Positions 1,935-28,291 of a stretch of DNA of 42,015 bases are shown one piece after another. Source of the stretch: Bacteroidales bacterium. Lineage in GTDB: Bacteria; Bacteroidota; Bacteroidia; Bacteroidales; WCHB1-69. Every line of letters starts with the position of its first letter. Within the stretch, counting starts at the first letter, position 1. Position numbers and translations under genes: made by a program. Location of the stretch: positions 1-42,015 of the forward strand of contig JAGCVQ010000059.1 in NCBI GenBank assembly GCA_017962275.1. The letters run 5' to 3'. The notes under the pieces were generated by a model. The model saw only the letters and a list, made by a program, of their open reading frames with translations, was not told the DNA's origin and ran no database searches.

Positions 1935-3377
1935 ATGAAAAAGATAGCAACCTTCATCATTGTCATCATGGGCATTTTCGGTCTGGCCAAGGCGCAGGGC
2001 GACTATGAGGCGTTCACCTTCTCGCAGGCGGACTATTTGGGCACGGCGCGTTTCATGGGTGCCGGCGGCGCATTCGGCGCGACGGGCGGCGATTTCTCCG
2101 CACTGGCCACCAACCCCGCATCCATCGGGCTGTTCAAACGCAGCGAAGCGACGTTCACCCCGATGATGCTCAACTTCAACTACACCGACAACTACTATTG
2201 CGGGAACAAGAGTTCCGCACAGAAATTCAGATACACTGTTCCGCAGGCCGGTATCGTCTCCGCGTTCAAGATCAACCGCGACAACGGATGGAAGAACTGG
2301 CAGTTCGGGTTCGGCTTCAACCGCATCAAGGATTTCAACGGCTCGCTCCGCGCGAACGCCACCGTCCATAGCACGCTGACGGACATGGTCATAAATCACG
2401 TCGATGGGATCAACTACAACAATCTCTCTGGCGACGGATACCTGTTCTGGAACAGCTGGCTGATTGACACCCTTCCGGGCACCACCGACCAGTACTACGG
2501 CTTCTTCAGCGACGAAGACATCGCCCAACGTGCCGTGGTGACCCGTTCCGGTGCCATTGACGAGATGATTTTCTCTGTGGGCGGCAATTACAGTGATCGA
2601 CTGTACATCGGCGCCACGTTAGGTTTCCCGTTCCTCAACTTCAAGGAGACCTGCTCCTACTATGAGGAACCGGCAACACAGGACAACATTGCCGGCATCA
2701 CCGGCTACAACCTCTACTCTGAACAACGGGACAACGGCACGGGTGTAAACTTGAAATTAGGCTTCATTTACCAACCCGTTGATTTTGTGCGCATTGGAGC
2801 AGCCTTCCACACGCCAACCTATTACTGGAAAATCAAAGACAACTTCTACCGCTCGATGGTCGCCGACTACACCTCCGGCAAACACAGCGACGACTCCTAC
2901 AGCAACTACAACACCTTCACGCTAACCACCCCATTGAAATTCAACGTCAACACTTCGTTCCTGATTGCCAAGCGCGCCTTCATCGCTGCCGAATATGAAT
3001 TCCAGGACTATGGGATGGCCAAGCTCTATGACGACCACTACGACTATGTCGCCGAGAACGAGGCCGTCCGCACGAAATATGGCGTTTCACACAGTGTCCG
3101 CGTGGGCGGCGAGATCAATGTTACGCAGAGCTTCCTCCTCCGCGCCGGCTATCGGCTGAAAACTTCCCCCTACAAGATGGCCGAAGCTCCCTACAACAAC
3201 ACCGCGCACTTCATCTCCGCCGGACTCGGGTTCAGAGGCAAAGTCATGTTCCTCGACCTCGCCTACGTGCTGCGCATGAGCAAGGACGCCTACTGGCTAT
3301 ACGACGCTTACGGCACCGCCTGCGAATACGGGACCAAGACCCACAGCGTGGTGGCCACCATCGGGTGCAAGTTTTGA
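1935..3377 (+). CDS. Outer-membrane beta-barrel protein, OmpP1/FadL-like
   Basis: 480 aa with a signal peptide ending near residue 20 (GLAKA before QGDY). The segment just after it, GTARFMGAGGAFGATGGDFS followed by ALATNPASIG, is the hallmark N-terminal hatch region of Bacteroidota proteins annotated as OmpP1/FadL/TodX transporters or hemin receptors. The rest has alternating aromatic/polar strands and ends in a C-terminal strand with terminal Phe (TIGCKF), as expected for a barrel inserted by BAM. The family moves hydrophobic compounds across the outer membrane. The substrate here is unknown, and the hemin receptor label should not be taken literally. The stop codon is the first triplet of a long heptad array. 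PorV, encoded at 28.3-29.6 kb, belongs to the same broad barrel superfamily. Confidence 0.85.
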   Translation: MKKIATFIIVIMGIFGLAKAQGDYEAFTFSQADYLGTARFMGAGGAFGATGGDFSALATNPASIGLFKRSEATFTPMMLNFNYTDNYYCGNKSSAQKFRYTVPQAGIVSAFKINRDNGWKNWQFGFGFNRIKDFNGSLRANATVHSTLTDMVINHVDGINYNNLSGDGYLFWNSWLIDTLPGTTDQYYGFFSDEDIAQRAVVTRSGAIDEMIFSVGGNYSDRLYIGATLGFPFLNFKETCSYYEEPATQDNIAGITGYNLYSEQRDNGTGVNLKLGFIYQPVDFVRIGAAFHTPTYYWKIKDNFYRSMVADYTSGKHSDDSYSNYNTFTLTTPLKFNVNTSFLIAKRAFIAAEYEFQDYGMAKLYDDHYDYVAENEAVRTKYGVSHSVRVGGEINVTQSFLLRAGYRLKTSPYKMAEAPYNNTAHFISAGLGFRGKVMFLDLAYVLRMSKDAYWLYDAYGTACEYGTKTHSVVATIGCKF

Positions 3378-3472
3378 GACGTGAGACGTGGGACGTGGGA
3401 CGTGAGACTTTGAACTTGGAACTTGGAACTTTGAACCTGGAACTTTGAACTTTGAACCTGGAACTTTGAACT
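3375..3472 (+). repeat. Stop-anchored heptad array, 14 units in continuous phase
   Basis: Starting exactly at the TGA stop of the barrel gene, the sequence divides into 14 uninterrupted heptads: TGAGACG x2, TGGGACG x2, TGAGACT, then mixed TTGAACT, TGGAACT and TTGAACC units. All fit TKRRACN. The array runs into the next gene, whose TTG start appears to lie in the last units. Confidence 0.95.
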
Positions 3473-4263
3473 TGAAGCCAATCATCATCATCATAACTTT
3501 TACGGTCGCCCTGGGCAGCGCATGCGCTCAGGAGCGGCTTTTTTTTGCGGAGAAGCCTTACGAATCCGTGACCACGGACATCCAGGGGGGACTCTATCTT
3601 TCGTTCGGATCCAACTTGGACTTCTTCACGCCCGACGGGAAACGGCATCTGAACTACAGCGACCAGACCTGGGGCAACATCACCCGGGTGGATGCCAACA
3701 TCGCTTCCAAAATCCTCGTGTTCTATCGTGAAAGCGGCGTAATCATGCTGTTAGACAACGAGATGTCCCCTATCGGGAGTCCGTTGAACCTGTTCGACAA
3801 ATCGATGACCACCGTCTCGTTGGCGGCCATGGGCAACCCGAACAAGATCGTGCTATACGACGATGCCAACCAAGACCTTCTCATCACCGACTTGAGTCTG
3901 AACGTGCTAAGCCAGTCGCACATCACCTTCCCGGGAGAGTTCCACCCCTCCGACATGCAGGTGGTTTCCGAACACCGCATCGCGCTATTGGACACGCTTC
4001 ACGGCATCTGTCTTTTCGACTTCTTCGGCACATACGAGCGGGAAATCCCGATCCCCGGCATCCAAGCCATGCAACTGATGAAAGATCGTATTCTATATCT
4101 TAAAGACAATACCTTATATAAATACGTTCTGCCTACCGCTTACACCCCGATGTCGGTCGATGCATTGGACCTCAACCTGCCCAAAATCAACCGGTTCTGT
4201 CTTTTCCAGAACACCTTGTACTATATTGACGAACAGAACATTCCTTGCAAAAGGGATCTTTAG
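3472..4263 (+). CDS. Secreted protein of unknown function, possible beta-propeller
   Basis: 263 aa if begun at the TTG at 3472. This start gives a clean signal peptide (MKPIIIIITFTVALGSACAQ). Upstream in-frame TTGs at 3466 and 3445 would add residues encoded purely by the heptad repeat, so I prefer the shortest form. No ATG is available near the signal peptide. The mature part has repeated short strands with polar turns (for example LYLSFGSNLDFF, KILVFYRESGVIMLL, RILYLKDNTLYKYV), which resemble the blades of a periplasmic beta-propeller. No catalytic motif is visible and I do not recognise the family. It follows the barrel gene directly, so the two may be co-transcribed through the array. Confidence 0.75.
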   Translation: MKPIIIIITFTVALGSACAQERLFFAEKPYESVTTDIQGGLYLSFGSNLDFFTPDGKRHLNYSDQTWGNITRVDANIASKILVFYRESGVIMLLDNEMSPIGSPLNLFDKSMTTVSLAAMGNPNKIVLYDDANQDLLITDLSLNVLSQSHITFPGEFHPSDMQVVSEHRIALLDTLHGICLFDFFGTYEREIPIPGIQAMQLMKDRILYLKDNTLYKYVLPTAYTPMSVDALDLNLPKINRFCLFQNTLYYIDEQNIPCKRDL

Positions 4264-4268
4264 CACAT

Positions 4269-4304
4269 AAAAAACGCAAGGACGCGCCAATGGCACGTCC
4301 CTAC
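4269..4304 (-). terminator. Intrinsic terminator-like hairpin downstream of the dehydrogenase gene
   Basis: On the minus strand, GGACGTGCCA and TGGCGCGTCC form a 10-bp stem (one G-U pair) with a 1-nt spacer, and a T6 run follows five bases later. It comes right after the heptad array and begins with GTAGGGACG, resembling the GTAGAGACG palindromes elsewhere in the window. Confidence 0.6.
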
Positions 4305-4345
4305 ATCATACATCACACGTCACACGTCACACGTCTCACGTCCTA
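4304..4345 (-). repeat. Stop-anchored heptad array, six units
   Basis: In the sense of the dehydrogenase gene, the TAG stop opens the series TAGGACG, TGAGACG, TGTGACG, TGTGACG, TGTGATG, TATGATG, exactly in phase with the stop codon. The series then runs into the terminator-like hairpin. Confidence 0.93.
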
Positions 4346-5548
4346 CTCGTGTTTATACACGGGCAGCGGTTGGTCGATTTGTTCGTTCCAGGGCAGACCG
4401 TAGCCGCCGATCTCCTTCATGAAGGGATCCGGATCGAACTGCTCGACGTTGAAGACGCCTTGGCCTTTCCACGTGCCGGTGAGGATCATCTTCGCGCCTA
4501 ACATCGCAGGCACGCCGGTCGTGTAGGAAACGGCCTGTGCGCCGACTTCCTTGAAACATTCGGCGTGGTCGCAGTTGTTCCAAACATAATAAGTGCGCTC
4601 CTTGCCATCCTTGACACCCTTGATCTGGCAGCCGATGGAGGTCTGGCCATGGTAGCCCTCGCCAAGAGAGGAGGGTTCGGGCAGGACAGCCTTCAGGAAC
4701 TGCAACGGCACAATCTCCATGCCTTTGTAGTTGATGGGCTTGATGCTGGTCATGCCGACTTCCTGCAGGACGTTCAGCACGGTGAGGTATTTCTGACCGA
4801 AGGTCATCCAGAAACGGGCGCGCTTGATGGTCGGGTAGCTCTTCACGAGCGACTCAAGCTCCTCATGATAAAGCAGATAGGATTCGCGGTCGCCGATATT
4901 GGGATACTCCACAGGACGGTGGATCGACATCGGGTCGATCTCTATCCATTGACCGTTCTCCCAGTATTTGCCACGCTGGGTAATCTCACGGATGTTGATT
5001 TCGGGGTTGAAGTTGGTGGCGAACGCCTTGCCGTGGTCGCCGGCATTGCAATCCACGATGTCGAGATAGTGTATCTCGTCGAAGTAGTGCTTGGCGGCGT
5101 AGGCGGTGTAGATGCTGGTCATGCCGGGGTCGAAACCGCAGCCGAGCAGGGCCATGATGCCGGCTTCTTTGAAGCGATCGTGGTAAGCCCACTGCCAGCT
5201 GTACTCGAACTTCGCTTTGTCGCGGGGCTCGTAGTTGGCCGTGTCCATGTAGTTGGTCTTGGTGGCGAGACAGGCGTCCATCAGGGGGAGGTCCTGATAC
5301 GGGAGGGCCACATTGATGAGCAGATCAGGTTTGTAGCTTTCGAGAAGGCGGATGGTCTCCTGCACGTTGTCGGCATCGACCTGGGCGGTCTGGATGCGGT
5401 TGCCGCCGATCTGCGCGGCGATGGCGTCGCATTTCGCCTTGGTGCGCGAGGCCAGCATGATTTCGGTGAAAACTTCCGGTACGGAAGCGCATTTGTGAGC
5501 CACGACGGAACCAACGCCGCCCGCTCCGATGATGAGTACTCTTGCCAT
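4343..5548 (-). CDS. Saccharopine dehydrogenase-family protein, probably carboxynorspermidine dehydrogenase
   Basis: 401 aa, the usual length for the carboxynorspermidine synthase/dehydrogenase branch of the LYS1-like family. An N-terminal Rossmann fold has GAGGVGS at residues 8-14. Downstream, ALLGCGFDPGMTSIYTAYA and DIVDCNAGDHGKAFATNFNP match the family's substrate-binding region, and the C-terminal half is the conserved alpha/beta domain. The expected reaction is NADPH-dependent condensation of aspartate semialdehyde with a diamine, giving carboxyspermidine or carboxynorspermidine for spermidine synthesis in the cytosol. The partner decarboxylase gene is not in this window. The gene is monocistronic: it has its own -7 element at 5594-5601 and a heptad array plus terminator at its end. 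The assignment within the family is by resemblance; saccharopine dehydrogenase proper is less likely. Confidence 0.82.
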   Translation of the reverse strand: MARVLIIGAGGVGSVVAHKCASVPEVFTEIMLASRTKAKCDAIAAQIGGNRIQTAQVDADNVQETIRLLESYKPDLLINVALPYQDLPLMDACLATKTNYMDTANYEPRDKAKFEYSWQWAYHDRFKEAGIMALLGCGFDPGMTSIYTAYAAKHYFDEIHYLDIVDCNAGDHGKAFATNFNPEINIREITQRGKYWENGQWIEIDPMSIHRPVEYPNIGDRESYLLYHEELESLVKSYPTIKRARFWMTFGQKYLTVLNVLQEVGMTSIKPINYKGMEIVPLQFLKAVLPEPSSLGEGYHGQTSIGCQIKGVKDGKERTYYVWNNCDHAECFKEVGAQAVSYTTGVPAMLGAKMILTGTWKGQGVFNVEQFDPDPFMKEIGGYGLPWNEQIDQPLPVYKHE

Positions 5549-5593
5549 TTGTCTATGTTTTTTTGTGATACTTACGGATTAAGTTTGAAAGTG

Positions 5594-5601: not shown

Positions 5602-5618
5602 CAATTTTTTTGGTTTAA

Positions 5619-5706
5619 GGTTTAGGGTTTATAGTTTATGGGGTAAAGGGTTAGATGGTTAAGAGGTTTGGCTCAACTCTAAACCATAAACTCTAAACCC
5701 TAAACC
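5619..5706. repeat. Inverted repeat with telomere-like heptads between divergent genes
   Basis: A 23-nt arm at 5619-5641 (heptads of TTTAGGG/TTTATAG type) is repeated in inverted orientation at 5684-5706 with a single mismatch, around a 42-nt centre that also contains GGTTA-type 7-mers. It lies between the two divergent promoters at 5594 and 5725. The left arm occurs again, identical over 24 nt, at 28200-28223. Confidence 0.9.
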
Positions 5707-5724
5707 ACTAACCATTAAAAATCG

Positions 5725-5732: not shown

Positions 5733-5757
5733 CCCGTTGATAAAAAAGACGACTTGT

Positions 5758-6798
5758 ATGAGAAAGAGTACCCTATCCATCATCTGTATCTTATTGATAC
5801 TTTGCATATTCGCAACCAGTTGCAAAAAAAAGAACAAGCCGGTGGATGTGGCCAAGCCCGCGCTGACCGAGGAGCAGGCGAAGAGTGCCGAGAACATCGA
5901 AATCAACCTGCTGCGCTACGAGCAGGACCTGTTCAACATCGACCAGTTCAACATGGCGGCGGCATTCGCGCAGATGTACGGCAAATATCCCGACAACATC
6001 GTCGCCAAGGGCGCGTGGGACAACCCTGAGATGCTGCAATCCATCAGGGGGTTCATCAACGACCCTGTCATCCAGGATATCTACAAGGAAACGGAAGCGC
6101 AATACGGTGACATGTCGGATTTCAAGAAGCAAATCACACCGGCGTTAAAGCTTTATCTGACGCATTTTCCGGATGAGACGATCCCCGATTTCTGCACGCT
6201 GGTGTCGGGCATCGACTTCAACATGCCACAGGTTTTCGGATACAAGAACACCATTTTCATCTGTCTCGACATGTACCTCGGCAAGGATTGCAAGTTCTAC
6301 GGGCAGGCCGGGATGCCCAAGTACATCGCCGCCCGTTGCGACAAGAAGTACATGGCCACCGACTGTTTCTCCAAAGCGTTGGTTTACAAGCATCTGCCTG
6401 ACAAGACGCTGGTCACGCTGTTGGACAACATGGTGGATGCGGGCAAGAAGATGCTGTTCACGCAGACGATGTTCCCGAACATTGAACCGCAAGACATCTT
6501 GGGCTACAGCAAAGAGCAGTACAAGTGGGCGCTCTCGCACGAATCGGCGGTCTGGCACCGGATGATCGAGAAGAACTTGGTGTATGACAACAGCGACGAC
6601 GTGGTGCGCCGGATGATGGACGAGGCGCCGTTCACCCGCGATTTCGGCAACGACTCCCCCGGCCGCATGGGTGTGTTCATCGGCTTCCAAATCGTGCAGA
6701 GCTATATGGAAACGCACCCCGGCACCACCCTGCAGGATCTCATGAAGATGACCGACAGTCAGAAGTTCCTGAAAGAATCGGGGTATAAGCCGAATTGA
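5758..6798 (+). CDS. gldB: Gliding motility/T9SS-associated lipoprotein GldB
   Basis: 346 aa. The lipoprotein signal has lipobox ATSC with Cys22, followed by a Lys-rich stretch. The body matches GldB along its length: LLRYEQDLFNID near the N-terminus, a central YKNTIFICLDMYLGKDCKFY, then GYSKEQYKWALSHESAVWHRM and the C-terminal NDSPGRMGVFIGFQIVQSYM. GldB is a lipoprotein needed for gliding in Flavobacterium and is conserved in non-gliding Bacteroidota. Its biochemical role is unknown. The family resembles metallopeptidases of DUF2268 type, but I see no convincing HExxH here. It has its own promoter at 5725. The TGA stop begins a heptad array. Confidence 0.85.
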   Translation: MRKSTLSIICILLILCIFATSCKKKNKPVDVAKPALTEEQAKSAENIEINLLRYEQDLFNIDQFNMAAAFAQMYGKYPDNIVAKGAWDNPEMLQSIRGFINDPVIQDIYKETEAQYGDMSDFKKQITPALKLYLTHFPDETIPDFCTLVSGIDFNMPQVFGYKNTIFICLDMYLGKDCKFYGQAGMPKYIAARCDKKYMATDCFSKALVYKHLPDKTLVTLLDNMVDAGKKMLFTQTMFPNIEPQDILGYSKEQYKWALSHESAVWHRMIEKNLVYDNSDDVVRRMMDEAPFTRDFGNDSPGRMGVFIGFQIVQSYMETHPGTTLQDLMKMTDSQKFLKESGYKPN

Positions 6799-6830
6799 GA
6801 CGTGAGACGTATGACGTGAGACGTGGGACG
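6796..6830 (+). repeat. Stop-anchored heptad array, five units, after gldB
   Basis: The TGA stop of gldB opens TGAGACG, TGAGACG, TATGACG, TGAGACG, TGGGACG. After about 25 nt of unrelated sequence an inverted array follows (6856-6932). Confidence 0.93.
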
Positions 6831-6855
6831 GTGGGAAAGTTTCCTCTTTGGTTTC

Positions 6856-6932
6856 AAATCACAAATCACAAGTCACAAATCACAAATCATACGTCATACG
6901 TCACAAGTCATACGTCATACGTCACACGTCAA
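6856..6932 (-). repeat. Inverted heptad array, 11 units, upstream of ssb
   Basis: On the plus strand there are eleven consecutive 7-mers: AAATCAC x2, AAGTCAC, AAATCAC, AAATCAT, then ACGTCAT/ACGTCAC/AAGTCAT units ending ACGTCAA. Read on the minus strand these are GTGATTT and GTGACGT units, the same family as the gldB array in opposite orientation. A transcript leaving gldB could therefore fold the two arrays on each other. Confidence 0.93.
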
Positions 6933-7019: not shown

Positions 7020-7022
7020 TTG

Positions 7023-14312: not shown

Positions 14313-14340
14313 AATCTCACATCTTACGTCTCACGTCTCA
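14313..14340 (-). repeat. Stop-anchored heptad array, four units, after the FAH-family gene
   Basis: On the minus strand the TGA stop opens TGAGACG, TGAGACG, TAAGATG, TGAGATT. The first two units are identical to those after gldB and the OmpP1-like gene, although the genes are unrelated. Confidence 0.92.
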
Positions 14341-14949
14341 CTTCACTTTGAAATCGAAAAGGCATTCGTCCTCCAGGAAACCCTGCAGATGGTCGTTGAT
14401 GTGCACCGGGCCCACTCCGACGGGCGTTCCGGTAAACAGGATGTCTCCCATCTTCAGCGTCATGAAGCGGGAAACGTAGGAAATCAGCGTGTCGATGGAG
14501 AAGAGCATCTCCTTGGTATGCCCCGCCTGCACCTTCTCGCCGTTCAGCAGAAGGTGGAAGTGGAGGTCCTGCACATCCGCGAATTTCGTTTTGGGAAGGA
14601 ACTTGCCCACCACAGCGGACCCGTCGAAAGCTTTGGCAATTTCCCAAGGCTCGCCCTCGGCCATGCATCTCCGCTGGATGTCGCGGGCCGTGAAATCCAC
14701 CCCGAGACCGATCTCGTCATAGTACTTATGAGCGAATTTCTCGTCGATGCACTTCCCCAGCCGATTGATTTTCACGATAATCTCGGTTTCGTAGTGAATC
14801 TCGTCGGAAAAGTCGGGCAGGAAGAAGGGACGGTTGCAGCGCGTGATGGCGGATTCGGGTTTCAGGAAAAACACCGGCTGTGTCGGCACCGCGTTATGCA
14901 GCTCCGCCGCGTGCGCCGCATAGTTCCGACCAATGCAAATGAACTTCAT
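14338..14949 (-). CDS. Fumarylacetoacetate hydrolase-family protein (FAHD1-like)
   Basis: 203 aa, the short form of the family. It starts MKFICIGRNYAAHAAEL. The metal-binding core is seen in EIHYETEIIVKI (acidic ligand pair) and DFTARDIQRRCMAEGEPWEIAKAFDGSA. LFTGTPVGVGPV is the conserved C-terminal loop. Relatives act as acylpyruvases or oxaloacetate decarboxylases with Mg2+ or Mn2+ in the cytosol. The substrate cannot be fixed from sequence. It starts 5 bp from the stop of the small barrel gene (14955), so the two are probably co-transcribed from the promoter at 15755. Confidence 0.9.
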   Translation of the reverse strand: MKFICIGRNYAAHAAELHNAVPTQPVFFLKPESAITRCNRPFFLPDFSDEIHYETEIIVKINRLGKCIDEKFAHKYYDEIGLGVDFTARDIQRRCMAEGEPWEIAKAFDGSAVVGKFLPKTKFADVQDLHFHLLLNGEKVQAGHTKEMLFSIDTLISYVSRFMTLKMGDILFTGTPVGVGPVHINDHLQGFLEDECLFDFKVK

Positions 14950-14954
14950 ACCGG

Positions 14955-15728
14955 TTAGAAGAAGTTGATGTTCAGGGCAATTTCTACACTGCCTATATTA
15001 GCGCGCTGGTCAAGTTTGCTGAAGCTGTTCTGCGCCTTGCCTTTCCCCTTGAAATAGTTGGAAAACGACTGCACATAGTTGATCATCACCCCCGCACGCA
15101 TGGCCGGGGTCACCGAATATTCAAAGCCGACACCCAAAATGAAGGATTCCTTGAACAGGGCGACTTCATCGGAAGCAAGCTTCTCACGCGACCAAAGTTC
15201 GGTGCCGAACATATAACTATCAGTGTTCGAGGCATACAGGTTAAAGCTGTGGAGCAAACCCGCATTACCGCAAATGTAGAAGTTGTCGATGGAGTTGGTC
15301 TTCATGGTGATCATCGTCGGGACAGTGAGATAGATGGAGCGATAGGTGCGCTGCGTGGGAGTGCTGTCGGCGGAGATGCCGAGCGACCATATCGGGATGA
15401 TGTCCAGGAACTTCATCTTGCCACCGGTATGCTCCGCAAAGACACCCGTCGAGAAATAGTAATTCTTCCCCTGGGTCAGGTTGATATTGAGGTTGATACC
15501 GTAGCGCATGCCCATAATGGCCCCGTTCTTTTCGTAGCCTTCCGTATGCGGATACATCCACGAAATGGTCGGGGCGAACGTCACGCCGAAGTTGACGCGG
15601 GAACCGACACCGGGATCCTTGATGAACGTGGAGGACATCCTCCCGCTCTTGTCATAATCGGCCCCCTGTGCACAGGCACCCCAAACGAAGGCCACCATTA
15701 TCACGGATAACAGAATGATTTTTTTCAT
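14955..15728 (-). CDS. Outer-membrane beta-barrel protein (porin/OmpW-PorT-like size class)
   Basis: 257 aa from the ATG at 15728. The signal peptide MKKIILLSVIMVAFVWGACA precedes QGADYDKSG. The mature chain alternates hydrophobic and polar residues in about eight strands (for example GVTFAPTISWMYP, MGMRYGINLNINLTQGKNYYFSTGVF, FILGVGFEYSVTPAMRAGVMINYV) and ends ALNINFF with a terminal Phe. This fits the Bacteroidota OMP_b-brl family, which includes PorT of the T9SS. PorT identity is possible but I see no decisive signature. It has its own promoter at 15755. The frame's upstream extension lies in heptad repeat and is not coding. Confidence 0.8.
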   Translation of the reverse strand: MKKIILLSVIMVAFVWGACAQGADYDKSGRMSSTFIKDPGVGSRVNFGVTFAPTISWMYPHTEGYEKNGAIMGMRYGINLNINLTQGKNYYFSTGVFAEHTGGKMKFLDIIPIWSLGISADSTPTQRTYRSIYLTVPTMITMKTNSIDNFYICGNAGLLHSFNLYASNTDSYMFGTELWSREKLASDEVALFKESFILGVGFEYSVTPAMRAGVMINYVQSFSNYFKGKGKAQNSFSKLDQRANIGSVEIALNINFF

Positions 15729-15770: not shown

Positions 15771-15833
15771 TGTGACGTGTGACTTGTGATTTGTGATTTG
15801 TGACATTATCTCCCTATAACCATGTAACCCTTA
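15771..15833 (-). repeat. Nine heptads between recG and the barrel gene, forward then inverted
   Basis: On the minus strand the TAA stop of recG opens four loose 7-mers (TAAGGGT, TACATGG, TTATAGG, GAGATAA). Five clear inverted units follow: TGTCACA, AATCACA, AATCACA, AGTCACA, CGTCACA. The inverted half matches the 6856-6932 array unit for unit. Confidence 0.8.
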
Positions 15834-19184: not shown

Positions 19185-19193
19185 GTATTTTTT

Positions 19194-19221
19194 AGGCAAG
19201 AGGCAAAAGGCAAGAGGCAAC
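19194..19221. repeat. Heptad array, unit AGGCAAG, four copies
   Basis: AGGCAAG, AGGCAAA, AGGCAAG, AGGCAAC lie between the divergent promoters at 19177 and 19233. This array is not next to a stop codon. Confidence 0.85.
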
Positions 19222-19232
19222 AGAAAAAAATG

Positions 19233-19240
19233 TACTTTTG
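19233..19240 (+). promoter_or_regulatory. -7 element TACTTTTG for the DPP IV-type peptidase gene
   Basis: TACTTTTG followed by CACC, 35 bp upstream of the ATG at 19276. Confidence 0.65.
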
Positions 19241-19275
19241 CACCATCCTTTGTACGAATTTATAAAACACTGAAT

Positions 19276-21396
19276 ATGAAAAGAATCACCCTGTTGATGA
19301 GCATCCTTTTCGCGATGCTTTTGGTCCCCGTTTTCGGACAGACCATCGATTTTTCCAAACGCTACGTCATCGACAACATCCGAGGCATCGCGTGGCAACC
19401 TGGTGCAGACCAGTATTCTTACATCGACGATGACCAGAACATCATACTGGTGAACGCCAAGAACGGCAAGGAGACCGTCTTCCTCGCCGCCCCCTCTCAG
19501 AAGGCGCACGAAATCTCCAGTCCCATCGGCTACGAATGGATCGATGCCAACACCCTTTACTTCCCCAGAGACAACAAAACCGTCACCGTGCTGAAAGACA
19601 AAATCACCACGCAGTCGTTCGACCAAGTGAATGCGGATGACGTGATTGACCAAGACATCAAGCATCAGGTGTTCGTCATCAAGAACGACAAAGGCGTGTT
19701 CGTGCAGAGTGCGCTGAACGGCTTCAAGCCGGTGCTGCTCTGTCCCGACACGGGCGAGCACATCGTCTTCGGCGAAACGGTTCACCGCAGCGAATGGGGC
19801 ATCGACGAGGGACAGTACATCTCCCCGAACGGCAACTACATCGCCTTCTACCGCATGGACGAGAGCATGGTGGAGGACTACCCGCTTGTGAACACCGGCA
19901 CGCCCATCGCGACCGTCGAGAACATCAAATACCCGATGGCCGGTCGCACCTCGCACGTGGTGAAAGTCGGCATCTTCGATGTGGCGAAATCCGCTGAAAA
20001 GGGCAGCCCCGTGTATCACTACATCCTCACCGACAAAGCCGACGGCGAGTTCCTGACCAACGTCACCTTCTCCCCCGACGAGCAATACCTCTACATTTCG
20101 CACCTCAACCGCGAGCAGAACCACTCCAAATTGATCCGCTACGACCTGCAAACCGGCAAGAAACTGGCCACTCTCATCGAGGAGCGCGACAACCGCTATG
20201 TGGAGCCTACAGAACGTATGATCTTCATGAAAAACGGCAACTTCCTCTGGTTCAGCGACCGCGACGGCTGGAAACATCTCTACATGTACACCTCCGACGG
20301 CAAATTGGTGAAGAAGGTGGTGGATGGCCGTTTCGACATTTGCCAATACTACGGCATGGACAAGGATGAAAAGAACATCTACTTCACCGCCCCATTAGAA
20401 AAGCCCGTGAACAAATACGTTTGCAAGGTCAACATCGACAAGGGCGCGCTCACCTGCCTCGCCCACGCGGATGGCGTACATCGTCCCGTTTTCAGCAAAT
20501 CAAAGGCCTATTTCATTGACTATTACAGCAATCCGACCATCCCGAGAATCATCTCGTTGGTGGATAACAACGGCAAGACACTCAGGACGTTGCTCACCGC
20601 GAAGAGCCCCTTCGGCGTGATGCAACTCGGCGACACCAAAATCTTCCCCATCGTGAACAAGGAAGGCGACTCGCTGTGGTGCCGCATGATCACCCCGCCG
20701 AATATGGACAAGAGCAAGAAATACCCGGTTTTCCTGTATGTCTATGGCGGCCCGCATTCCCAATTGGTGACCAACCAGTACCTCTCCGGCGGCATCTTCC
20801 TGGAATTCATGGCGCAACAGGGCTACATCGTCTTCACGCTGGATAACCGCGGCACGCAGAACCGTGGCGCGGAGTTTGAAAAGTGCATCCACCGCAACTT
20901 GGGCGTGCGTGAGGTCGAAGACCAGATGTGCGGCGTAGAGTACTTGAAATCACTGCCTTACGTGGATGCTGACCGCATCGGATTGGATGGCTGGAGTTAC
21001 GGCGGCTTCATGGTGTTGTCACTGATCACCGCGCATCCCGAAGCCTTCAAGGCGGCTTCCTGCGGCGGTCCCGTGGTCAACTGGGAATGGTACGAGGTGA
21101 TGTACGGTGAACGTTACATGGACACCCCGCAAGAGAACCCTTCCGGCTATGCCAACGCCAACATCATCCCGAAAATCAAGAACGTGAAGTGCCCGTTGTT
21201 AGTGATGCACGGTGCCCAGGACCACACTGTCGTTCAACAACATACGTTGGAGCTGCTCCGCCAAGCCGTCAGCGATGACGTCGAGTTGGAGTACTTCGTC
21301 TATACCGTTCACGACCACAACGTGATCGGACCCGAGCGCAGACACCTCTACAACAAGCTGTGGCGCTTCCACAACCAGAACACCAAGGGCGAATGA
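19276..21396 (+). CDS. Secreted dipeptidyl peptidase IV-type serine peptidase (S9B)
   Basis: 706 aa with a signal peptide (MKRITLLMSILFAMLLVPVFG). An N-terminal eight-bladed propeller region covers about 25-460 (PF00930-like), with the S9B signature FYRMDESMVEDYPLV near 191-205. The C-terminal alpha/beta hydrolase domain (PF00326) has the nucleophile Ser574 in GWSYGGF, Asp649 in HGAQDHTV and His679 or His681 in YTVHDHNV. DPP IV enzymes remove X-Pro or X-Ala dipeptides from peptide N-termini and serve periplasmic peptide use in asaccharolytic and gut Bacteroidales. It is about 15-30 residues shorter than typical relatives, but all catalytic parts are present. Its TGA stop overlaps the thpR ATG (ATGA). 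Confidence 0.93.
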   Translation: MKRITLLMSILFAMLLVPVFGQTIDFSKRYVIDNIRGIAWQPGADQYSYIDDDQNIILVNAKNGKETVFLAAPSQKAHEISSPIGYEWIDANTLYFPRDNKTVTVLKDKITTQSFDQVNADDVIDQDIKHQVFVIKNDKGVFVQSALNGFKPVLLCPDTGEHIVFGETVHRSEWGIDEGQYISPNGNYIAFYRMDESMVEDYPLVNTGTPIATVENIKYPMAGRTSHVVKVGIFDVAKSAEKGSPVYHYILTDKADGEFLTNVTFSPDEQYLYISHLNREQNHSKLIRYDLQTGKKLATLIEERDNRYVEPTERMIFMKNGNFLWFSDRDGWKHLYMYTSDGKLVKKVVDGRFDICQYYGMDKDEKNIYFTAPLEKPVNKYVCKVNIDKGALTCLAHADGVHRPVFSKSKAYFIDYYSNPTIPRIISLVDNNGKTLRTLLTAKSPFGVMQLGDTKIFPIVNKEGDSLWCRMITPPNMDKSKKYPVFLYVYGGPHSQLVTNQYLSGGIFLEFMAQQGYIVFTLDNRGTQNRGAEFEKCIHRNLGVREVEDQMCGVEYLKSLPYVDADRIGLDGWSYGGFMVLSLITAHPEAFKAASCGGPVVNWEWYEVMYGERYMDTPQENPSGYANANIIPKIKNVKCPLLVMHGAQDHTVVQQHTLELLRQAVSDDVELEYFVYTVHDHNVIGPERRHLYNKLWRFHNQNTKGE

Positions 21397-23320: not shown

Positions 23321-23345
23321 AAAATTTGGTTCTTAATTTGTTTTT

Positions 23346-23387
23346 ATTCTTTGTGATTTATTCTTTGTGATTTGTGATTTGTGATTT
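23346..23387 (+). repeat. Inverted heptad array, TTGTGAT units, upstream of yajC
   Basis: GTGA recurs with spacing 7 (or 14 across an interrupted unit) at 23353, 23367, 23374 and 23381. On the minus strand, the direction of transcription, these are AAATCAC units. It faces the stop-anchored array 23395-23436. Confidence 0.85.
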
Positions 23388-23394
23388 GATCATT

Positions 23395-23436
23395 ACACTC
23401 ACAATTCACTATTCACCATTCACTATTCACTATTCA
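23395..23436 (-). repeat. Stop-anchored heptad array, six units, after the DUF1573 gene
   Basis: On the minus strand the TGA stop opens TGAATAG, TGAATAG, TGAATGG, TGAATAG, TGAATTG, TGAGTGT, exactly in phase. The unit differs from the TGAGACG type, but the arrangement is the same. Confidence 0.93.
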
Positions 23437-23898
23437 CGTACTTGATGAAACATTGGCTGTGATGGTGAGGATGGTCTCCGCCGGATAGGTGTTGGCCCCC
23501 ACCAGAATGCGCTTCTGCACCTTGCCCTTCTGCCCTTTGGAATCGAACGTCACCGTAATCTCGCCGCTCTCCCCGGGACGCACAGGCGCCTTCGGGGGCT
23601 GGGAGGTGGTACATCCGCACGTGGCTTCCGACGAGTAGATAATCAGGTTCGACTTACCCGTGTTCTTAAACTTAAAGTTGTAGGTAAGCCGCTCACCCTC
23701 AACCACATCGCCGAAATCATACGTGGTGGTCTCAAACGAAATGACGGGCATCTTCTCCGCCTCTTTCGCTGACAAACCTTCCGCCGTCTGCGGAATGTGG
23801 ACATCCTCCACTGTGAAATCACCCTCCTTCGCGGGCTTCTGATGGCAACCACACACTACCATTGCCACAATCGCCAATAATATCGTAAGTTTCTTCAT
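23434..23898 (-). CDS. DUF1573-domain lipoprotein
   Basis: 154 aa from the ATG at 23898 (MKKLTILLAIVAMVVCGC). Lipid attachment is probably at Cys18. The DUF1573 Ig-like beta-sandwich follows: ISFETTTYDFGDVVEGERLTYNFKFKNTG, the conserved cysteine loop SSEATCGCTTSQPPKAPVRPGESGEI and VTFDSKGQKGKVQKRILV. Proteins of this type are periplasmic or surface beta-sandwiches without known enzymatic role. Its position between nusB and yajC is typical for Bacteroidota. The codons upstream of 23898 in the same frame are heptad repeat and not part of the protein. Confidence 0.9.
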   Translation of the reverse strand: MKKLTILLAIVAMVVCGCHQKPAKEGDFTVEDVHIPQTAEGLSAKEAEKMPVISFETTTYDFGDVVEGERLTYNFKFKNTGKSNLIIYSSEATCGCTTSQPPKAPVRPGESGEITVTFDSKGQKGKVQKRILVGANTYPAETILTITANVSSST

Positions 23899-23983: not shown

Positions 23984-23985
23984 CG

Positions 23986-24933: not shown

Positions 24934-24965
24934 GATAATTCGTTGATATTAAAGTTCTTGAAAAA

Positions 24966-25913
24966 CTATCGCAGCGTGAAAGAGGTCTCACCGAGGAACT
25001 GGTCGTCGGTGTAGAGCTGCACGTTGTACTGCCCCTTGATGGCTTTGTCGTCGGACATCAAATCCCAGTTCAGGGTGACGTTCTCCGCCTTGTTCTTGTA
25101 ATTGATCACCGTCTTGCAGGAATACTGCAGACGCTGGCCGTTGTGCACGAACGAATAGGTGTCGCCGGAACCCATCGTGAGGACCTTGCCCGTCTCAGGG
25201 ATGGCGATACGGCAATAGACATTCACCGGACCGGGCTCGATCAGGGAGTTCTCACCCAACATCAGCGTCGTCTTGATGCGTTTCACCTTGTTGGCCTTGT
25301 CGGTCGGTTCCTCGGTGCCCTTATTGCGCACCAGATAGCCGGCACTCTTGATGTTGTAGGCTTTGTAAACGGCCGCGTTGCTGATCTTCTGCGACAGGTC
25401 GTCGTTGGACTTTTGCATGTTCCGGGTCACCTCGCGCTCCTGCTCAAGGTCGGCACGAACCTGTTGGTTCTCTTCCTTCAGCGCCTTGTTCTCTTGATAG
25501 AGCTGATCCATCTCCTTGACGTACTCTTGGGAGATGTTCTGCAGACGCGCCAGCTGTTTCTTGATGCGGTTGTAGTCGGCCTGCGAATTGATCAGCTTCT
25601 CAATCTCGGCGGCACTGGCCATGATGATGCTGTCCTTCTCGCTGAGTTGGTCGGAAAGCTCGCCGTACTGCTCCTTGATGCGGTTATGCTCCGCCAGAAG
25701 CGAATCCAGCTCGCTCTGCAGCTCCATGTTCTGGCTCTCCACCTGCTGGTACACCTTGTTCGTCGTCGGTTTGGCGAAAAAGGCCAGATAAAGCGTGCTG
25801 CACAGGAACAATCCCGCTAAAGCACCCAAAATAATCACCCATTTCTTCAAGGGATTCTCCTGATTGGCATTCTGATTCTGCCCTGCATAATTCATCGAAC
25901 TCGTGGTTTCCAT
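24966..25913 (-). CDS. Membrane-anchored coiled-coil protein of unknown function
   Basis: 315 aa. A short polar N-terminus precedes one transmembrane helix at about 25-47 (WVIILGALAGLFLCSTLYLAF). A long coiled coil covers about 52-180, with leucine/glutamate heptads (VESQNMELQSELDSLLAEHNRIKEQ and similar). A C-terminal beta-rich domain spans about 185-315 and includes VYCRIAIPETGKVLTMGSGDTY and ends FLGETSFTLR. No enzymatic motif is visible. Similar Bacteroidota proteins are sometimes labelled chromosome-segregation or ParA-like, which the sequence does not justify. It heads the nusB-to-coaE gene string. No TAnnTTTG element was found in the 68 bp to the next gene. A periplasmic tether or envelope scaffold is an inference from topology only. 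Confidence 0.82.
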   Translation of the reverse strand: METTSSMNYAGQNQNANQENPLKKWVIILGALAGLFLCSTLYLAFFAKPTTNKVYQQVESQNMELQSELDSLLAEHNRIKEQYGELSDQLSEKDSIIMASAAEIEKLINSQADYNRIKKQLARLQNISQEYVKEMDQLYQENKALKEENQQVRADLEQEREVTRNMQKSNDDLSQKISNAAVYKAYNIKSAGYLVRNKGTEEPTDKANKVKRIKTTLMLGENSLIEPGPVNVYCRIAIPETGKVLTMGSGDTYSFVHNGQRLQYSCKTVINYKNKAENVTLNWDLMSDDKAIKGQYNVQLYTDDQFLGETSFTLR

Positions 25914-25981
25914 ATTGATTTGTTTTAATTTTTCTTGAACGGGATTAACGTTAAGTGCGTGAAAAAATTATATATCCGACA

Positions 25982-27628
25982 TTATTTTAAAAACATCAGT
26001 TCCCGCAACTCCTTCGGGAGATAGAACGTGTTGTTCTTATCGACATAAACGACCACGGAATTCAGGTCCACGCGCTTGTTGTTCATGGTGACGTAGTTGG
26101 CGTAACTGTCCGCAATCAGCACGTTCCGCTTGTTTTTGACGACCAGACGGCGGTTGTACTTGTCCACACTGTCAATCCGGATGTCGAAACCTTCAAAAAC
26201 CTGATGATGGTCGGCGTAAATCTCCTCCGTCAGGGGTTCCAACGCACCGGTAAGGTTCATCTGGCGACAAAGATATTTGTTGACCTCAATATTGGTAGGA
26301 ACACCCACAAGTCTGTCATTCTGAGGATGATAGACGGCCAAGAAGACATTCTCGCCCGTGTGTCCGAAGGTGGTGTAACCGAAGTAGGTACGGTTGTAGA
26401 GAATCTGGCTGAGCATCTTGCACACCGAGAGGTTGTTCTTGCGCTGCTCGTAGGGAATCGGGGAGTTGCTGTAGTCGCTGCCGGTGGTCAGATAGGTGAT
26501 TTCAGCCGGTTGCGGGGTGAACCCGAAGTAGGTCTCGAAAAGCTGCGGCCATTCCGTGGTGTCGGCCTTTTTCAGTTTCTCGCCCATCGACCAATTCGAG
26601 AGTTTGTAGTTGTCGATGGGGCTCATCAGCTGCTGCAGCGACAGCTTGTCGTAGCCGTCACGGCTGGCTTTGGGGTTGCCGAGGGTCACCGCGCCGGTAC
26701 CGTGATCGGGCACGATGAGAACCACGGTTTGACCGTCCTTCTCGGCGAAACGGAGCGCCTCGCCACAGGCCTTGTCAAATTCGAGGAACTCGATGATGGC
26801 GTTCTTGGCGTCATTGTCGTGCGCGGCCCAATCGACCTTGCTGCCCTCCACCATCAGGAAGAAGCCGTTCTCGTTCTTCGACAACAGGTCAATCGCCTTG
26901 CGGGTCATCTCCGCCAAAGAGGGGGTCTGCTGTTTGTCGGCCTCCAACCAATACGGCATGGAAGTTTCCGCAAACAAAGCCCAGACCGGAGCTTTGGTAC
27001 AATTCCGGAACCCTTGGATATCATCGAGATAGACATTGTAGCCAGCGCTCTTCAAATCGTTCTGATAGGTCTCGTTGAGATACTTGACACCGCCGCCCAT
27101 CACGACATCGATATGGTTGTGCACCATCTGCGGGGCAATCACGCTGTATCTGCCGCGCTTGTAGGAATGGGCAGAGCAGTCAGCGGGAGTGGCGTGCGGG
27201 AACTCGCAAGTGAAGACCAGACCGGTCGATTTGTGTTGCTGGATCTTGGCAGCCTCCAAAATCGTGGCCAACGGCTGGTAGGCGCGGGCGGCGTCAACCG
27301 GCACCAAGTCATGGTCGGTGGCGACGGGATACGTGGAGACAAAGCCCGTCTGCGAAGGCATACCCGACACGTAACAGGAGGTCGTGGGAGCAGAATCCCC
27401 AATCGGCGCATCCGAAGAATGAGTGCGCACCAGACCGCAGATGTACGGGTCGATATTCAATGTGGTTTGGGTGGAATCCAGATAGGTCTGGTACCAGCGG
27501 GCGGCCGAGAGAAGGCTCGTGGAGGTGCCGTCCGGAATCATCAATATCACGTTTTTGATGGGCTTGGGCTGCGCCATCGTGAATAACACCGTGATAATCA
27601 ATAAGGTAGAAAGAACGAAACGTCTCAT
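25982..27628 (-). CDS. Alkaline phosphatase (PhoA family)
   Basis: 548 aa with signal peptide MRRFVLSTLLIITVLFTMA before QPKPIKN. Catalytic landmarks: ILMIPDGTS (metal ligand Asp33), GDSAPTTSCYVSG (Asp78 and nucleophile Ser79), MVEGSKVDWAAHDND (metal ligands), VPDHGTGAV and FGHTGENV, the last being the conserved HTGE/DV of PhoA. It would hydrolyse phosphate monoesters in the periplasm with Zn2+/Mg2+. The C-terminal about 110 residues after HTGENV form an additional domain containing a strand-rich segment (FDIRIDSVDKYNRRLVVKNK). It is monocistronic, with its own -7 element at 27652. No Pho-box-like repeats were noticed. Its stop is followed by AT-rich sequence before the coiled-coil gene. Confidence 0.92.
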   Translation of the reverse strand: MRRFVLSTLLIITVLFTMAQPKPIKNVILMIPDGTSTSLLSAARWYQTYLDSTQTTLNIDPYICGLVRTHSSDAPIGDSAPTTSCYVSGMPSQTGFVSTYPVATDHDLVPVDAARAYQPLATILEAAKIQQHKSTGLVFTCEFPHATPADCSAHSYKRGRYSVIAPQMVHNHIDVVMGGGVKYLNETYQNDLKSAGYNVYLDDIQGFRNCTKAPVWALFAETSMPYWLEADKQQTPSLAEMTRKAIDLLSKNENGFFLMVEGSKVDWAAHDNDAKNAIIEFLEFDKACGEALRFAEKDGQTVVLIVPDHGTGAVTLGNPKASRDGYDKLSLQQLMSPIDNYKLSNWSMGEKLKKADTTEWPQLFETYFGFTPQPAEITYLTTGSDYSNSPIPYEQRKNNLSVCKMLSQILYNRTYFGYTTFGHTGENVFLAVYHPQNDRLVGVPTNIEVNKYLCRQMNLTGALEPLTEEIYADHHQVFEGFDIRIDSVDKYNRRLVVKNKRNVLIADSYANYVTMNNKRVDLNSVVVYVDKNNTFYLPKELRELMFLK

Positions 27629-27651
27629 TTTTTTACTCGTTTTAAAACGGG

Positions 27652-27659
27652 CAAAGATA
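27652..27659 (-). promoter_or_regulatory. -7 element TATCTTTG for the alkaline phosphatase gene
   Basis: The minus strand reads TATCTTTG followed by CCCG, 23 bp upstream of the ATG at 27628. It sits at the edge of a heptad array. Confidence 0.65.
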
Positions 27660-27665
27660 CATTTT

Positions 27666-27700
27666 TTTTGCTTTTGGCTGTTGGCTTTTTGCTATTGGCC
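27666..27700. repeat. Heptad array, TTTTGCT/GTTGGCT type, five units
   Basis: TTTTGCT, TTTGGCT, GTTGGCT, TTTTGCT, ATTGGCC on the plus strand fill most of the gap between the ispF stop and the phosphatase promoter. In the direction of ispF they begin 16 nt after the stop. Confidence 0.8.
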
Positions 27701-27716
27701 TACGGTTTTTCCAACA

Positions 27717-28196
27717 CTATTTCCGTAAGGTCACGGCGGCGACGGCGGCGATGCCTTCGCCCGCGCCGGTGAAGCCCATCTTCTCGTTGGTCTTGGCCTT
27801 CACGGCGATGTTCTCTGTCGGGGTTTCCAACAGCTGCGACAACTTCGCGATGATGTCGTCAATGTGCGGTTTCATCTTCGGCCGTTCCAACACGAGCGTG
27901 CAGTCGAGGTTGTTGACCTGCCACCCTTTTCCGTGGACCAGCTCCACCACCTTGGCGAGCAGGAGCGTACTGTCCGCGTTTTTGTAAGCGGCATCCGTGT
28001 CGGGAAACCACGTGCCGATGTCCTTGAGACCGGCGGCACCAAGCAGCGCGTCGCACACGGCGTGAATCAGCACATCGCCGTCGGAATGCGCTGCCAATCC
28101 CAGCTCGTATGGGATGACAATGCCCCCGATGACCAGCGGCCTGCCGGGGGCAAATCTATGGGAATCATACCCGAATCCAACTCGGAAATCCATCAT
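27717..28196 (-). CDS. ispF: 2-C-methyl-D-erythritol 2,4-cyclodiphosphate synthase
   Basis: 159 aa, full length. The N-terminus has FRVGFGYDSHRF with the metal-binding Asp11 and His13. GLAAHSDGDVLIHAVCDALLGA, DIGTWFPDTDAAYKNADS and the C-terminal KAKTNEKMGFTGAGEGIAAVAAVTL are all IspF signatures. It cyclises CDP-methylerythritol 2-phosphate in the MEP isoprenoid pathway, as a cytosolic trimer. The neighbourhood ispF-porV-porU is conserved with Porphyromonas. Two consecutive ATGs make the start ambiguous by one codon. The 92 bp to porV contain a heptad array, a palindrome and an inverted array, with no visible promoter. Confidence 0.97.
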   Translation of the reverse strand: MMDFRVGFGYDSHRFAPGRPLVIGGIVIPYELGLAAHSDGDVLIHAVCDALLGAAGLKDIGTWFPDTDAAYKNADSTLLLAKVVELVHGKGWQVNNLDCTLVLERPKMKPHIDDIIAKLSQLLETPTENIAVKAKTNEKMGFTGAGEGIAAVAAVTLRK

Positions 28197-28199
28197 TTA

Positions 28200-28223
28200 G
28201 GTTTAGGGTTTATAGTTTATGGG
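28200..28223. repeat. Dispersed repeat of TTTAGGG-type heptads, identical to 5619-5642
   Basis: The 24 nt (GGTTTAGGG, TTTATAG, TTTATGGG in order) match the left arm of the inverted repeat at 5619 base for base. On the minus strand it lies directly upstream of the ispF start, as the inverted partner of the array after porV. Confidence 0.92.
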
Positions 28224-28233
28224 AGGTGGGTAT

Positions 28234-28261
28234 GTAGAGACGCAAAATTTTGCGTCTCTAC
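28234..28261. repeat. 28-bp palindrome (family copy 3), perfect
   Basis: Arms GTAGAGACGCAAAA and TTTTGCGTCTCTAC are perfect 14-bp complements with no loop base left over. It lies between porV and ispF, flanked on both sides by heptad arrays. Confidence 0.95.
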
Positions 28262-28263
28262 TA

Positions 28264-28291
28264 TTGCCTATTACCTTTTGCCAATTGCCTA
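28264..28291 (-). repeat. Stop-anchored heptad array, four units, after porV
   Basis: On the minus strand the TAG stop of porV opens TAGGCAA, TTGGCAA, AAGGTAA, TAGGCAA. TAG and the 28-bp palindrome follow directly. Confidence 0.9.

What the first reader, a model, noticed from the sequence alone, without database searches (positions are those of the whole stretch)
3375..28291. Heptad (7-bp period) arrays anchored on stop codons across unrelated genes
Seen directly: in six genes the stop codon is exactly the first triplet of a tandem 7-mer array on the sense strand. These are the OmpP1-like gene (3375, 14 units), the carboxynorspermidine dehydrogenase gene (4345, minus, 6 units), gldB (6796, 5 units), the FAH gene (14340, minus, 4 units), the DUF1573 gene (23436, minus, 6 units) and porV (28291, minus, 4 units). 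nusB (2-nt offset), the first lipoprotein gene and recG are looser cases. The period is always 7 while the unit differs (TGAGACG, TGAATAG, TAGGCAA, TTAAGAG), so this is not one dispersed sequence but one rule. Heptanucleotide repeats (STRR) are known from cyanobacteria; I know of no description tied to stop codons in Bacteroidota. Because 7 is 1 modulo 3, units containing TGA or TAG place stops in all three frames within 21 nt. Fail-safe termination, an mRNA 3'-end element or slipped-strand growth seeded at the stop are all possible.
Basis: partly seen in the sequence, partly recalled or inferred. Interest (0 to 1): 0.85.

Follow-up and report, generated by a model that had tools for sequence, protein, structure and literature searches.

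The report
Seven-base repeats edging gene gaps
In this bacterium many gaps between genes hold runs of seven-letter DNA repeats that begin at the very edge of the neighbouring gene, often inside its stop codon, and mostly face inward from both sides of the gap, which looks more like the scar of DNA inserted or repaired there than like a special stop signal.

Summary
The arrays are real and genome-wide, but the stop codon is only half the rule. In a 31% sample, period-7 arrays make up 7% of intergenic DNA (183 intergenic, 16 coding; simulated DNA none). Edges pile up at stops (61 of 174 at -6..+3, 21 expected), though only 2 of the 6 listed arrays start exactly on the stop. Arrays also lie before START codons, and there the strand flips: the G-rich strand reads away from the gene at both ends (stop 105:14, start 43:6). 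Spacers with two arrays have them facing inward, mostly with different units. Orthologues with short array-free gaps suggest insertions; protein ends stay put while TAA becomes TAG/TGA (19 of 25 genes, controls 66 of 232). AGTTAGY follows the stop-side rule outside Bacteroidota (21:4), but its start-side rule is not seen there (3:3). The same polarity was published for one G-rich heptad in Xanthomonas and Nostoc (PMC4692102). Best reading: scars of insertion or end-joining, with repeats grown inward from each edge and kept at stops because compact gaps leave no other room. Evidence from mid-gap insertions is thin; the writing enzyme is unknown.

The parts
1879..1924 (+). TTAAGAG array, 6 nt from the first base of a TAG stop (1873-1875)
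3375..3473 (+). stop-side array starting on TGA; GTGAGAC units then GAACTTG/GAACTTT/GAACCTG units
4302..4342 (-). stop-side GTGAGAC array immediately after TAG of a gene with saccharopine-dehydrogenase domains; a hairpin-like sequence follows (read by eye)
5607..5651 (+). left, G-rich arm (GGTTTAA/GGTTTAG) between two divergent genes, no stop codon on either side
5672..5718 (-). right arm (C-rich on +, CTCTAAAC) of the same divergent gap
6796..6830 (+). stop-side GTGAGAC array starting on TGA of gldB
6855..6931 (-). right, inward-facing arm (CAAATCA / CATACGT on +) after gldB; its outer edge adjoins non-coding DNA about 120 nt before the next called start
14314..14344 (-). stop-side GTGAGAC array overlapping TGA of the FAA-hydrolase gene; in relative G013 the same stop is followed by a different unit (ACTGAGG, read by eye)
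15771..15803 (+). TTGTGAT/TGTGACG array on the start side of the minus-strand gene ending at 14955 (called start 15698; its longest ORF starts at 15806 and would contain the array)
23343..23388 (+). left arm (TTTGTGA), 22 nt from the yajC start
23399..23437 (-). right arm overlapping TGA of the DUF1573 gene; the gap is 113 nt here and 23 nt in relative G012
28261..28293 (-). stop-side GGCAATA array overlapping TAG of porV; part of a 96-nt insertion in the alignment (the gap is 95 nt) between porV and ispF

Best explanation
The arrays are the edges of insertions (or break-repair scars) in gene gaps. Each event leaves a segment whose ends carry heptad arrays that start at the junction and run inward, the G-rich strand being the one that extends 5'->3' away from each flank. 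They sit at stop codons because ancestral gaps are often only a few nucleotides long, so a tolerated junction must fall in or just after the stop on one side and before the next start on the other; where it falls inside the stop codon, the first array bases rebuild a stop (usually TAG or TGA) at the same position. SHOWN here: the arrays, the edge pile-up, the polarity at stops and starts in this genus, array-free short gaps in orthologues, the codon switch at unchanged protein ends, different units obeying one polarity, and the stop-side rule for one unit in other phyla. SUGGESTED by few cases: that the insertion edge rather than the gene edge sets the polarity. INFERRED: that the process is 3'-end extension with 7-nt re-priming at the two ends of a break, followed by joining, by an ordinary repair DNA polymerase, and that there is no dedicated function at the stop.
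For: Polarity: G000+G013+G020, arrays <15 nt from a gene, G-rich strand reading away from the gene: 105:14 at stops (8 without skew), 43:6 at starts (6 without skew), p 2e-18 and 6e-8; 31 of 37 multi-array spacers read '+ then -', 5 same sign, 1 '- then +'. G013 alone 29:3 and 13:3. Arms mostly of different units (same family in 6 of 23; shuffle mean 2.0, maximum 6). Insertions: ispF starts within about 20 nt of the porV stop in 19 of 23 same-genus loci, against gaps of 95, 119 and 174 nt with arrays in G000, G012 and G016. Strict recount (other species array-free, one row per spacer): 12 spacers, edge arrays inward 9:1 with 1 neutral; only 2:0 with 1 neutral lie >=25 nt from a gene. Looser count: 16:1 with 3 neutral over 16 rows, which include two spacers listed twice and some length differences within shared arrays. 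Protein end kept within 3 residues in 148 of 162 links, controls 573 of 627; TAA replaced by TAG/TGA in 19 of 25 genes, controls 66 of 232, p 5e-6. Outside Bacteroidota AGTTAGY within 30 nt of a stop is sense 21:4, p 9e-4.
Against: No enzyme found: no RVT_1 match in G000, no Ku match in any of 40 genomes. Mid-gap insertions, the cases that separate insertion edge from gene edge, are very few. Outside Bacteroidota the start side shows no polarity for AGTTAGY (3:3 within 30 nt, 5:5 beyond), on rough gene calls. Divergent gaps follow the rule less clearly (left side 11:1, right side 6:3, the rest neutral). The fixed hypervariable position of some units (AGTTAG[C/T] 49% variant, GGCAA[N]A 59%) and the fact that neighbouring units share that base LESS often than chance (0.39 versus 0.51; 0.16 versus 0.30) are not predicted by one-unit slippage. 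Insertion versus loss was not polarised with a tree. Junctions fall inside the stop more often than a uniform junction in a gap would give, which a permissive model explains only in part.
Confidence: 0.48

Rival explanations
1. Functional stop element: sense-strand arrays are selected as fail-safe stops or as an mRNA 3'-end element.
For: Stops in all three frames within 24 nt in 46% of 71 stop-side arrays versus 6% of 317 array-free genes (reverse complement of the arrays 34%); sense strand 0.84 versus 0.42 stops per 7 nt at stops. Outside Bacteroidota only the stop side shows polarity (21:4 versus 3:3). Rehm et al. found transcripts starting or stopping more often in G4-forming repeats than in control repeats (PMC4692102 section 15).
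Against: Mirror polarity at starts in this genus without stop bias; stop-bearing arrays are not significantly commoner at stops than at starts (89 of 96 versus 30 of 36, p 0.19); part of the enrichment is built in, since an array that overlaps the stop must contain one; close relatives lack arrays at the same genes.
Confidence: 0.15
2. Ordinary replication slippage: heptads expand neutrally in non-coding DNA up to the coding edge (the LSSR view, 7 nt set by the polymerase).
For: Periods mostly 7, then 8 and 11, and nearly confined to non-coding DNA; LSSR work of Mrazek as summarised in PMC4679880 and PMC4692102.
Against: Predicts neither opposite strands at the two edges of one gap nor whole two-armed segments absent from relatives; neighbouring units are less alike than chance.
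Confidence: 0.18
3. Arrays ride on dispersed palindromic elements (GTAG/CGTC-type REPs or MITEs) moved by Y1 transposases.
For: A GTAGAGACGC...GCGTCTCTAC palindrome lies inside several spacers, including porV-ispF; REP ends are known to provide the TAG stop of flanking genes (PMC3733652, passages). Y1_Tnp matches are more numerous in the 12 array-rich species than in the 12 array-poor ones (mean 2.8 versus 1.7, p 0.02, not corrected for genome size or kinship).
Against: Many insertions have no such palindrome or other centres; Y1_Tnp is also present in 11 of the 12 array-poor species; units differ.
Confidence: 0.11
4. Telomerase-like reverse transcriptase writes the repeats from an RNA template (as DRT10 makes tandem-repeat cDNA).
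For: G-rich strand extended outward from both ends, as in fused telomeres (recalled analogy); one variable position in some units; DRT10 precedent (PMC12632851, abstract only). Among 16 genus members tested, RVT_1 matches occur in 4 of 9 array-rich and 0 of 7 array-poor species (p 0.09).
Against: No RVT_1 match in array-rich G000 (301 doublets), G003 (185), G007, G010 or G012, although these genomes are 63-97% complete.
Confidence: 0.06
5. G-quadruplex or two-armed RNA hairpin element.
For: G4 proposed for GGGAATC repeats (PMC4692102); 6 of 23 arm pairs share a unit.
Against: Only 13 of 226 arrays hold four or more GGG (or CCC) triplets, overlaps counted; 17 of 23 arm pairs do not share a unit at 6 of 7 positions.
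Confidence: 0.03

Closest known systems
GGGAATC / GGGGA(C/T)T heptad repeats of Xanthomonas and Nostoc (Rehm et al. 2015, PMC4692102; passages and sections 15-16 read)
   Same: Period 7, mostly intergenic, most within 0-50 nt of stops on the coding strand (including overlaps with the stop), before starts on the non-coding strand, many convergent pairs in Xanthomonas.
   Different: One G4-forming unit there; here at least eight different units, mostly without GGG, in one genome, with different units at the two ends, short array-free gaps in relatives, and stop-codon switching.
TAACTGA heptamers of Beggiatoaceae, cyanobacteria and five Bacteroidetes (MacGregor 2015, PMC4679880; abstract and passages read)
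   Same: Heptad direct repeats in gaps, mostly just upstream of starts; in 13 cases repeats overlap an upstream stop. TAACTGA before a start is AGTTATC read away from that gene, which fits the polarity (my reading).
   Different: Interpreted there as a possible translational regulator site; single unit; those 13 are 'forward' for the downstream gene, opposite to the stop-side rule here.
STRR / LSSR heptanucleotide repeats (Mrazek 2007; Calothrix STRR; known here only through the two papers above)
   Same: Overrepresentation of 7-nt units.
   Different: No edge polarity or insertion context in what I read.
GTAG-tagged REPs (PMC3733652, passages read)
   Same: Dispersed repeats whose end supplies the TAG stop of the flanking gene.
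   Different: Palindromes with a conserved tag, linked to RAYT transposases; not tandem heptads.
DRT10 tandem-repeat cDNA synthesis (PMC12632851, abstract)
   Same: Tandem-repeat DNA made by repeat addition.
   Different: Protein-primed, needs a reverse transcriptase and an ncRNA; no RVT_1 match in G000.

Membership tests
Heptanucleotide STRR/LSSR | tandem 7-nt units overrepresented against other periods | tested here: met
   183 intergenic arrays at period 7, 43 at 8, 12 at 11, 0-1 at 5, 6, 9, 10; Markov null 0
Heptanucleotide STRR/LSSR | copy-number change by slippage between strains | not tested
   no strain pairs; unit order shows less neighbour identity than chance
Xanthomonas/Nostoc GGGAATC class | G-rich strand on the coding side after stops, non-coding side before starts | tested here: met
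   105:14 and 43:6 in three species of this genus
Xanthomonas/Nostoc GGGAATC class | GGG tracts able to form G4 | tested here: not met
   13 of 226 arrays have >=4 GGG/CCC
Stop-codon fail-safe element | orientation bound to stops only | tested here: not met
   start-side arrays with mirrored polarity in this genus; outside Bacteroidota start-side polarity not seen
Telomerase-like RT product | reverse transcriptase in the genome | tested here: not met
   no PF00078 match in G000, 3 of 14 control genomes ring; genome 94% complete
NHEJ scar | Ku present | tested here: not met
   0 of 40 genomes; control rings in B. subtilis
Insertion scar with inward arms | array-free short gap in orthologues | tested here: met
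   porV-ispF, yajC-DUF1573 and others; 12 distinct spacers in the strict count
Insertion scar with inward arms | polarity set by the insertion edge also far from genes | tested here: inconclusive
   2:0 with 1 neutral at >=25 nt from a gene

The most novel reading that the evidence does not exclude
Bacteria of several phyla heal or join broken DNA ends by a telomere-like 3' extension that lays down short repeats of fixed period (7, less often 8 or 11) on both ends before joining; a unit family has a constant core used for re-priming and, in some families, one position that is filled freely. Heptad arrays in gene gaps, including those that supply stop codons, are its fossil record.
Probability: 0.18. 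Interest if true: 0.85.

Novelty: new variant of a known kind. Interest (0 to 1): 0.58.

Why it matters
Heptad repeats have been noted in scattered bacteria without an agreed cause. If different units, in unrelated genes, at stops and starts alike, all face inward from the edges of inserted DNA, that puzzle becomes a testable question about how bacteria repair or fill breaks, and it warns against reading such repeats at stops as termination signals. It also shows how stop codons are swapped (TAA to TAG/TGA) without changing the protein.

Tried and rejected
Fail-safe stops as the cause of orientation: disfavoured by the start-side mirror in this genus, not excluded elsewhere. Hairpin arms: 6 of 23 pairs share a unit. 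G4: 13 of 226. Ku: no match in 40 genomes. Reverse transcriptase: no match in G000, yet within the genus matches only in array-rich species (4 of 9 versus 0 of 7, p 0.09). Y1 transposase: in array-rich and array-poor species, somewhat more copies in the rich. Exonuclease VII and Y-family polymerase: present in 23 and 22 of 25 genomes, misses in genomes 59-88% complete, so no link seen. One-unit slippage: neighbour units less alike than chance. Pfam gave no hit for the gene ending at 3377 and for ORF 19192-20346, so I do not use the OmpP1 name. The plasmid protein search was uninformative. Paper searches: (listings).

Full report
WHAT IS THERE. Tandem Repeats Finder and a period scan confirm arrays at all six stops. 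Edge offsets from the stop's first base are 0, +3, 0, -4, -1 and -2, so the claim of an exact first triplet is true for two and nearly true for four. I extended the check to 57 stretches of the same genome plus the window, 868,907 bases of 2,772,719, with genes called by my own dicodon script (655 genes, 85% coding). Period-7 arrays number 183 between genes and 16 in genes; period 8 gives 43 and 0, period 11 gives 12 and 0, periods 5, 6, 9 and 10 give 0 or 1 between genes; five order-2 Markov simulations of the intergenic DNA gave no period-7 array.

STOP ANCHORING IS REAL. Of 176 array edges facing a stop, offsets 0 and +1 hold 10 and 16; six lie at +9..+25 and 67 beyond +40. With a uniform-placement null, 61 of 174 edges fall at -6..+3 against 21.1 expected (G013: 23 of 81 against 12.0). 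Genes with an array at the stop use TAG or TGA more (TAG 45 of 159, TGA 29 of 139, TAA 24 of 299 carry arrays; odds ratio 3.8, p 2e-8). Array coverage is 0.23 in the first 10 nt after stops in tandem gaps and about 0.15 farther on, against 0.06 in the last 10 nt before starts.

IN THIS GENUS STARTS OBEY THE MIRROR RULE. Taking the G-rich strand as reference, arrays near a stop read away from the gene on the sense strand, and arrays near a start read away from the gene on the antisense strand. Counts within 15 nt for G000, G013 and G020 together: stops 105:14 (8 neutral), starts 43:6 (6 neutral); 31 of 37 multi-array spacers are '+ then -', 5 have one sign, one is '- then +'. In G000, with periods 7, 8 and 11, the first and last arrays of a spacer are (+,-) in 33 of 50 and (-,+) in 1 of 50. 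The rule is clear in tandem and convergent gaps and weaker in divergent ones (left 11:1, right 6:3, others neutral); the window's divergent gap with arrays 5607-5651 and 5672-5718 shows it with no stop on either side. The two arms share a unit in 6 of 23 pairs (shuffle mean 2.0, maximum 6), so most are independent.

UNITS. At least eight families recur (AGTTAGY, GTGAGAC, GGCAANA, GTTCAAR, AATKGAT, GAATGAA, GTTTAGG/ATGGTTT-like, GGTTATT). Some have one hypervariable position that is the same in all loci: AGTTAG[C/T] 49% variant over 152 units of 34 loci with the other positions at 1-5%; GGCAA[N]A 59% over 96 units of 20 loci, with one other position at 24% and the rest at 0-10%. Others vary at several positions. 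Neighbouring units share the variable base less often than chance (0.39 versus 0.51 in 27 arrays; 0.16 versus 0.30 in 17). One-unit slippage would give the opposite; loss of perfect repeats could contribute.

COMPARISON WITH RELATIVES. In 19 of 23 same-genus loci the ispF start follows the porV stop within about 20 nt. Of the other four, G016 and G012 have gaps of 174 and 119 nt with arrays, G009 a gap of 1 nt, and G019 was not read. G000 has a 95-nt gap with a GGCA-type array at the stop and, by eye, a GTTTAGG-type stretch at the start. Between G000 and G013 (40 syntenic pairs) some sites carry arrays in one species only, and some carry arrays in both with different units at the same stop (window 14338 gene; L044 pair). 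From 614 orthologous adjacent pairs, 88 alignments showed an insertion of 25 nt or more in an array-bearing spacer; 57 were dropped for poor flanks and 31 gave 16 rows, with edge arrays inward 16:1 and 3 neutral. Those rows include two spacers listed twice and some length differences within arrays that both species have. A strict recount, requiring the other species to be array-free and counting each spacer once, leaves 12 spacers with edge arrays inward 9:1 and 1 neutral; at 25 nt or more from a gene only 2:0 and 1 neutral. So the insertion context is shown, but whether the insertion edge rather than the gene edge sets the polarity rests on few cases. Protein ends do not move (148 of 162 links within 3 residues; controls 573 of 627), but where array-free orthologues mostly end in TAA, the array gene ends in TAG/TGA in 19 of 25 cases against 66 of 232 array-free genes (p 5e-6).

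DISTRIBUTION. AGTTAGYAGTTAGY occurs 301 times in G000 and 0 to 504 times in other species of the genus; none of the 16 genomes of other families in the order has one. The 10 relatives with >=96% identity in the protein have 13-504 matches (G010, where that gene was not found, has 61); the 12 with <=95% have 0-8. Within 30 nt of stops sense to antisense is 53:6 overall; within 30 nt of starts 12:3. In the 51 loci that are not Bacteroidota (cyanobacteria, Proteobacteria, Chlorobium, Chloroflexi, Patescibacteria and others) it is 21:4 at stops (p 9e-4) but 3:3 at starts, and beyond 30 nt 3:7 and 5:5. So outside Bacteroidota the stop side holds for this unit and the start side was not seen; gene starts there are rough.

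LITERATURE. Rehm et al. 2015 (PMC4692102; passages and two sections read) saw the same placement and strand rule, at stops and starts, for G4-forming GGGAATC-type repeats in two Xanthomonas and one Nostoc, with convergent pairs and overlap with stops, and left function open. MacGregor 2015 (PMC4679880; abstract and passages) describes TAACTGA heptamers, mostly just before starts, and summarises Mrazek's slippage idea. In the listings of searches I saw no paper that joins several units under one polarity rule or shows insertion edges.

MECHANISM. The G-rich strand extends 5'->3' from each flank into the insert. That is what would be left if both 3' ends of a break were lengthened by repeated re-priming with a 7-nt step and then joined, as in two healed ends fused head to head (analogy from general knowledge). 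Compact gaps plus selection for an in-frame stop then explain why edges sit at stops. No reverse transcriptase or Ku match was found in G000, so an ordinary repair polymerase is the likelier writer; this step is inference. Two weak links point elsewhere and are not settled: RVT_1 matches occur in 4 of 9 array-rich and 0 of 7 array-poor species tested (p 0.09), and Y1 transposase matches are more numerous in array-rich species (2.8 versus 1.7, p 0.02, uncorrected). Fail-safe termination may be a side benefit (stops in three frames in 46% versus 6%) but does not explain the start-side mirror.

Noticed in passing
L024:1831, L051:7346, L055:18627 and others in the genome sample: A dispersed 100-200 nt element (TTCCTTGAGCAGTCCCGAAGGGAC ... 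CCCCACA..GTGTGGGG) lies between stop and next start in most of 27 spacers found by one short motif; in 23 of 27 both flanking genes run in the element's direction. It may be an attC-like or RNA element; sometimes an AGTTAGY or GGCAA array is its head.
   Followed up: partly
window 28234-28261 and several other spacers: A palindrome GTAGAGACGC...GCGTCTCTAC, resembling GTAG-tagged REPs, lies between the porV stop-side array and the ispF start, and in several other array-bearing spacers.
   Followed up: partly
window 29765-29815: Period-11 array (ACACAGGACTT, 4.6 copies, 97%) upstream of porV; period 8 and 11 arrays recur in the sample (43 and 12).
   Followed up: no
same-genus genomes G001-G023: AGTTAGY doublets jump from 0-8 to 13-504 between species with <=95% and >=96% identity in one marker protein, suggesting an onset or burst on one branch of the genus.
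   Followed up: partly
G022 locus L157 against G015: In an array-poor species a 102-nt segment absent from G015 lies 123 and 53 nt from the divergent genes and, by eye, has two inward arms of one unit (GATAGCG / TGCTATC); the scan scored its one detected array as neutral in skew.
   Followed up: partly
genus members G000-G015: Within the genus, reverse transcriptase (RVT_1) matches occur only in array-rich species (G002, G006, G009, G013), though G000, with many arrays, has none.
   Followed up: partly
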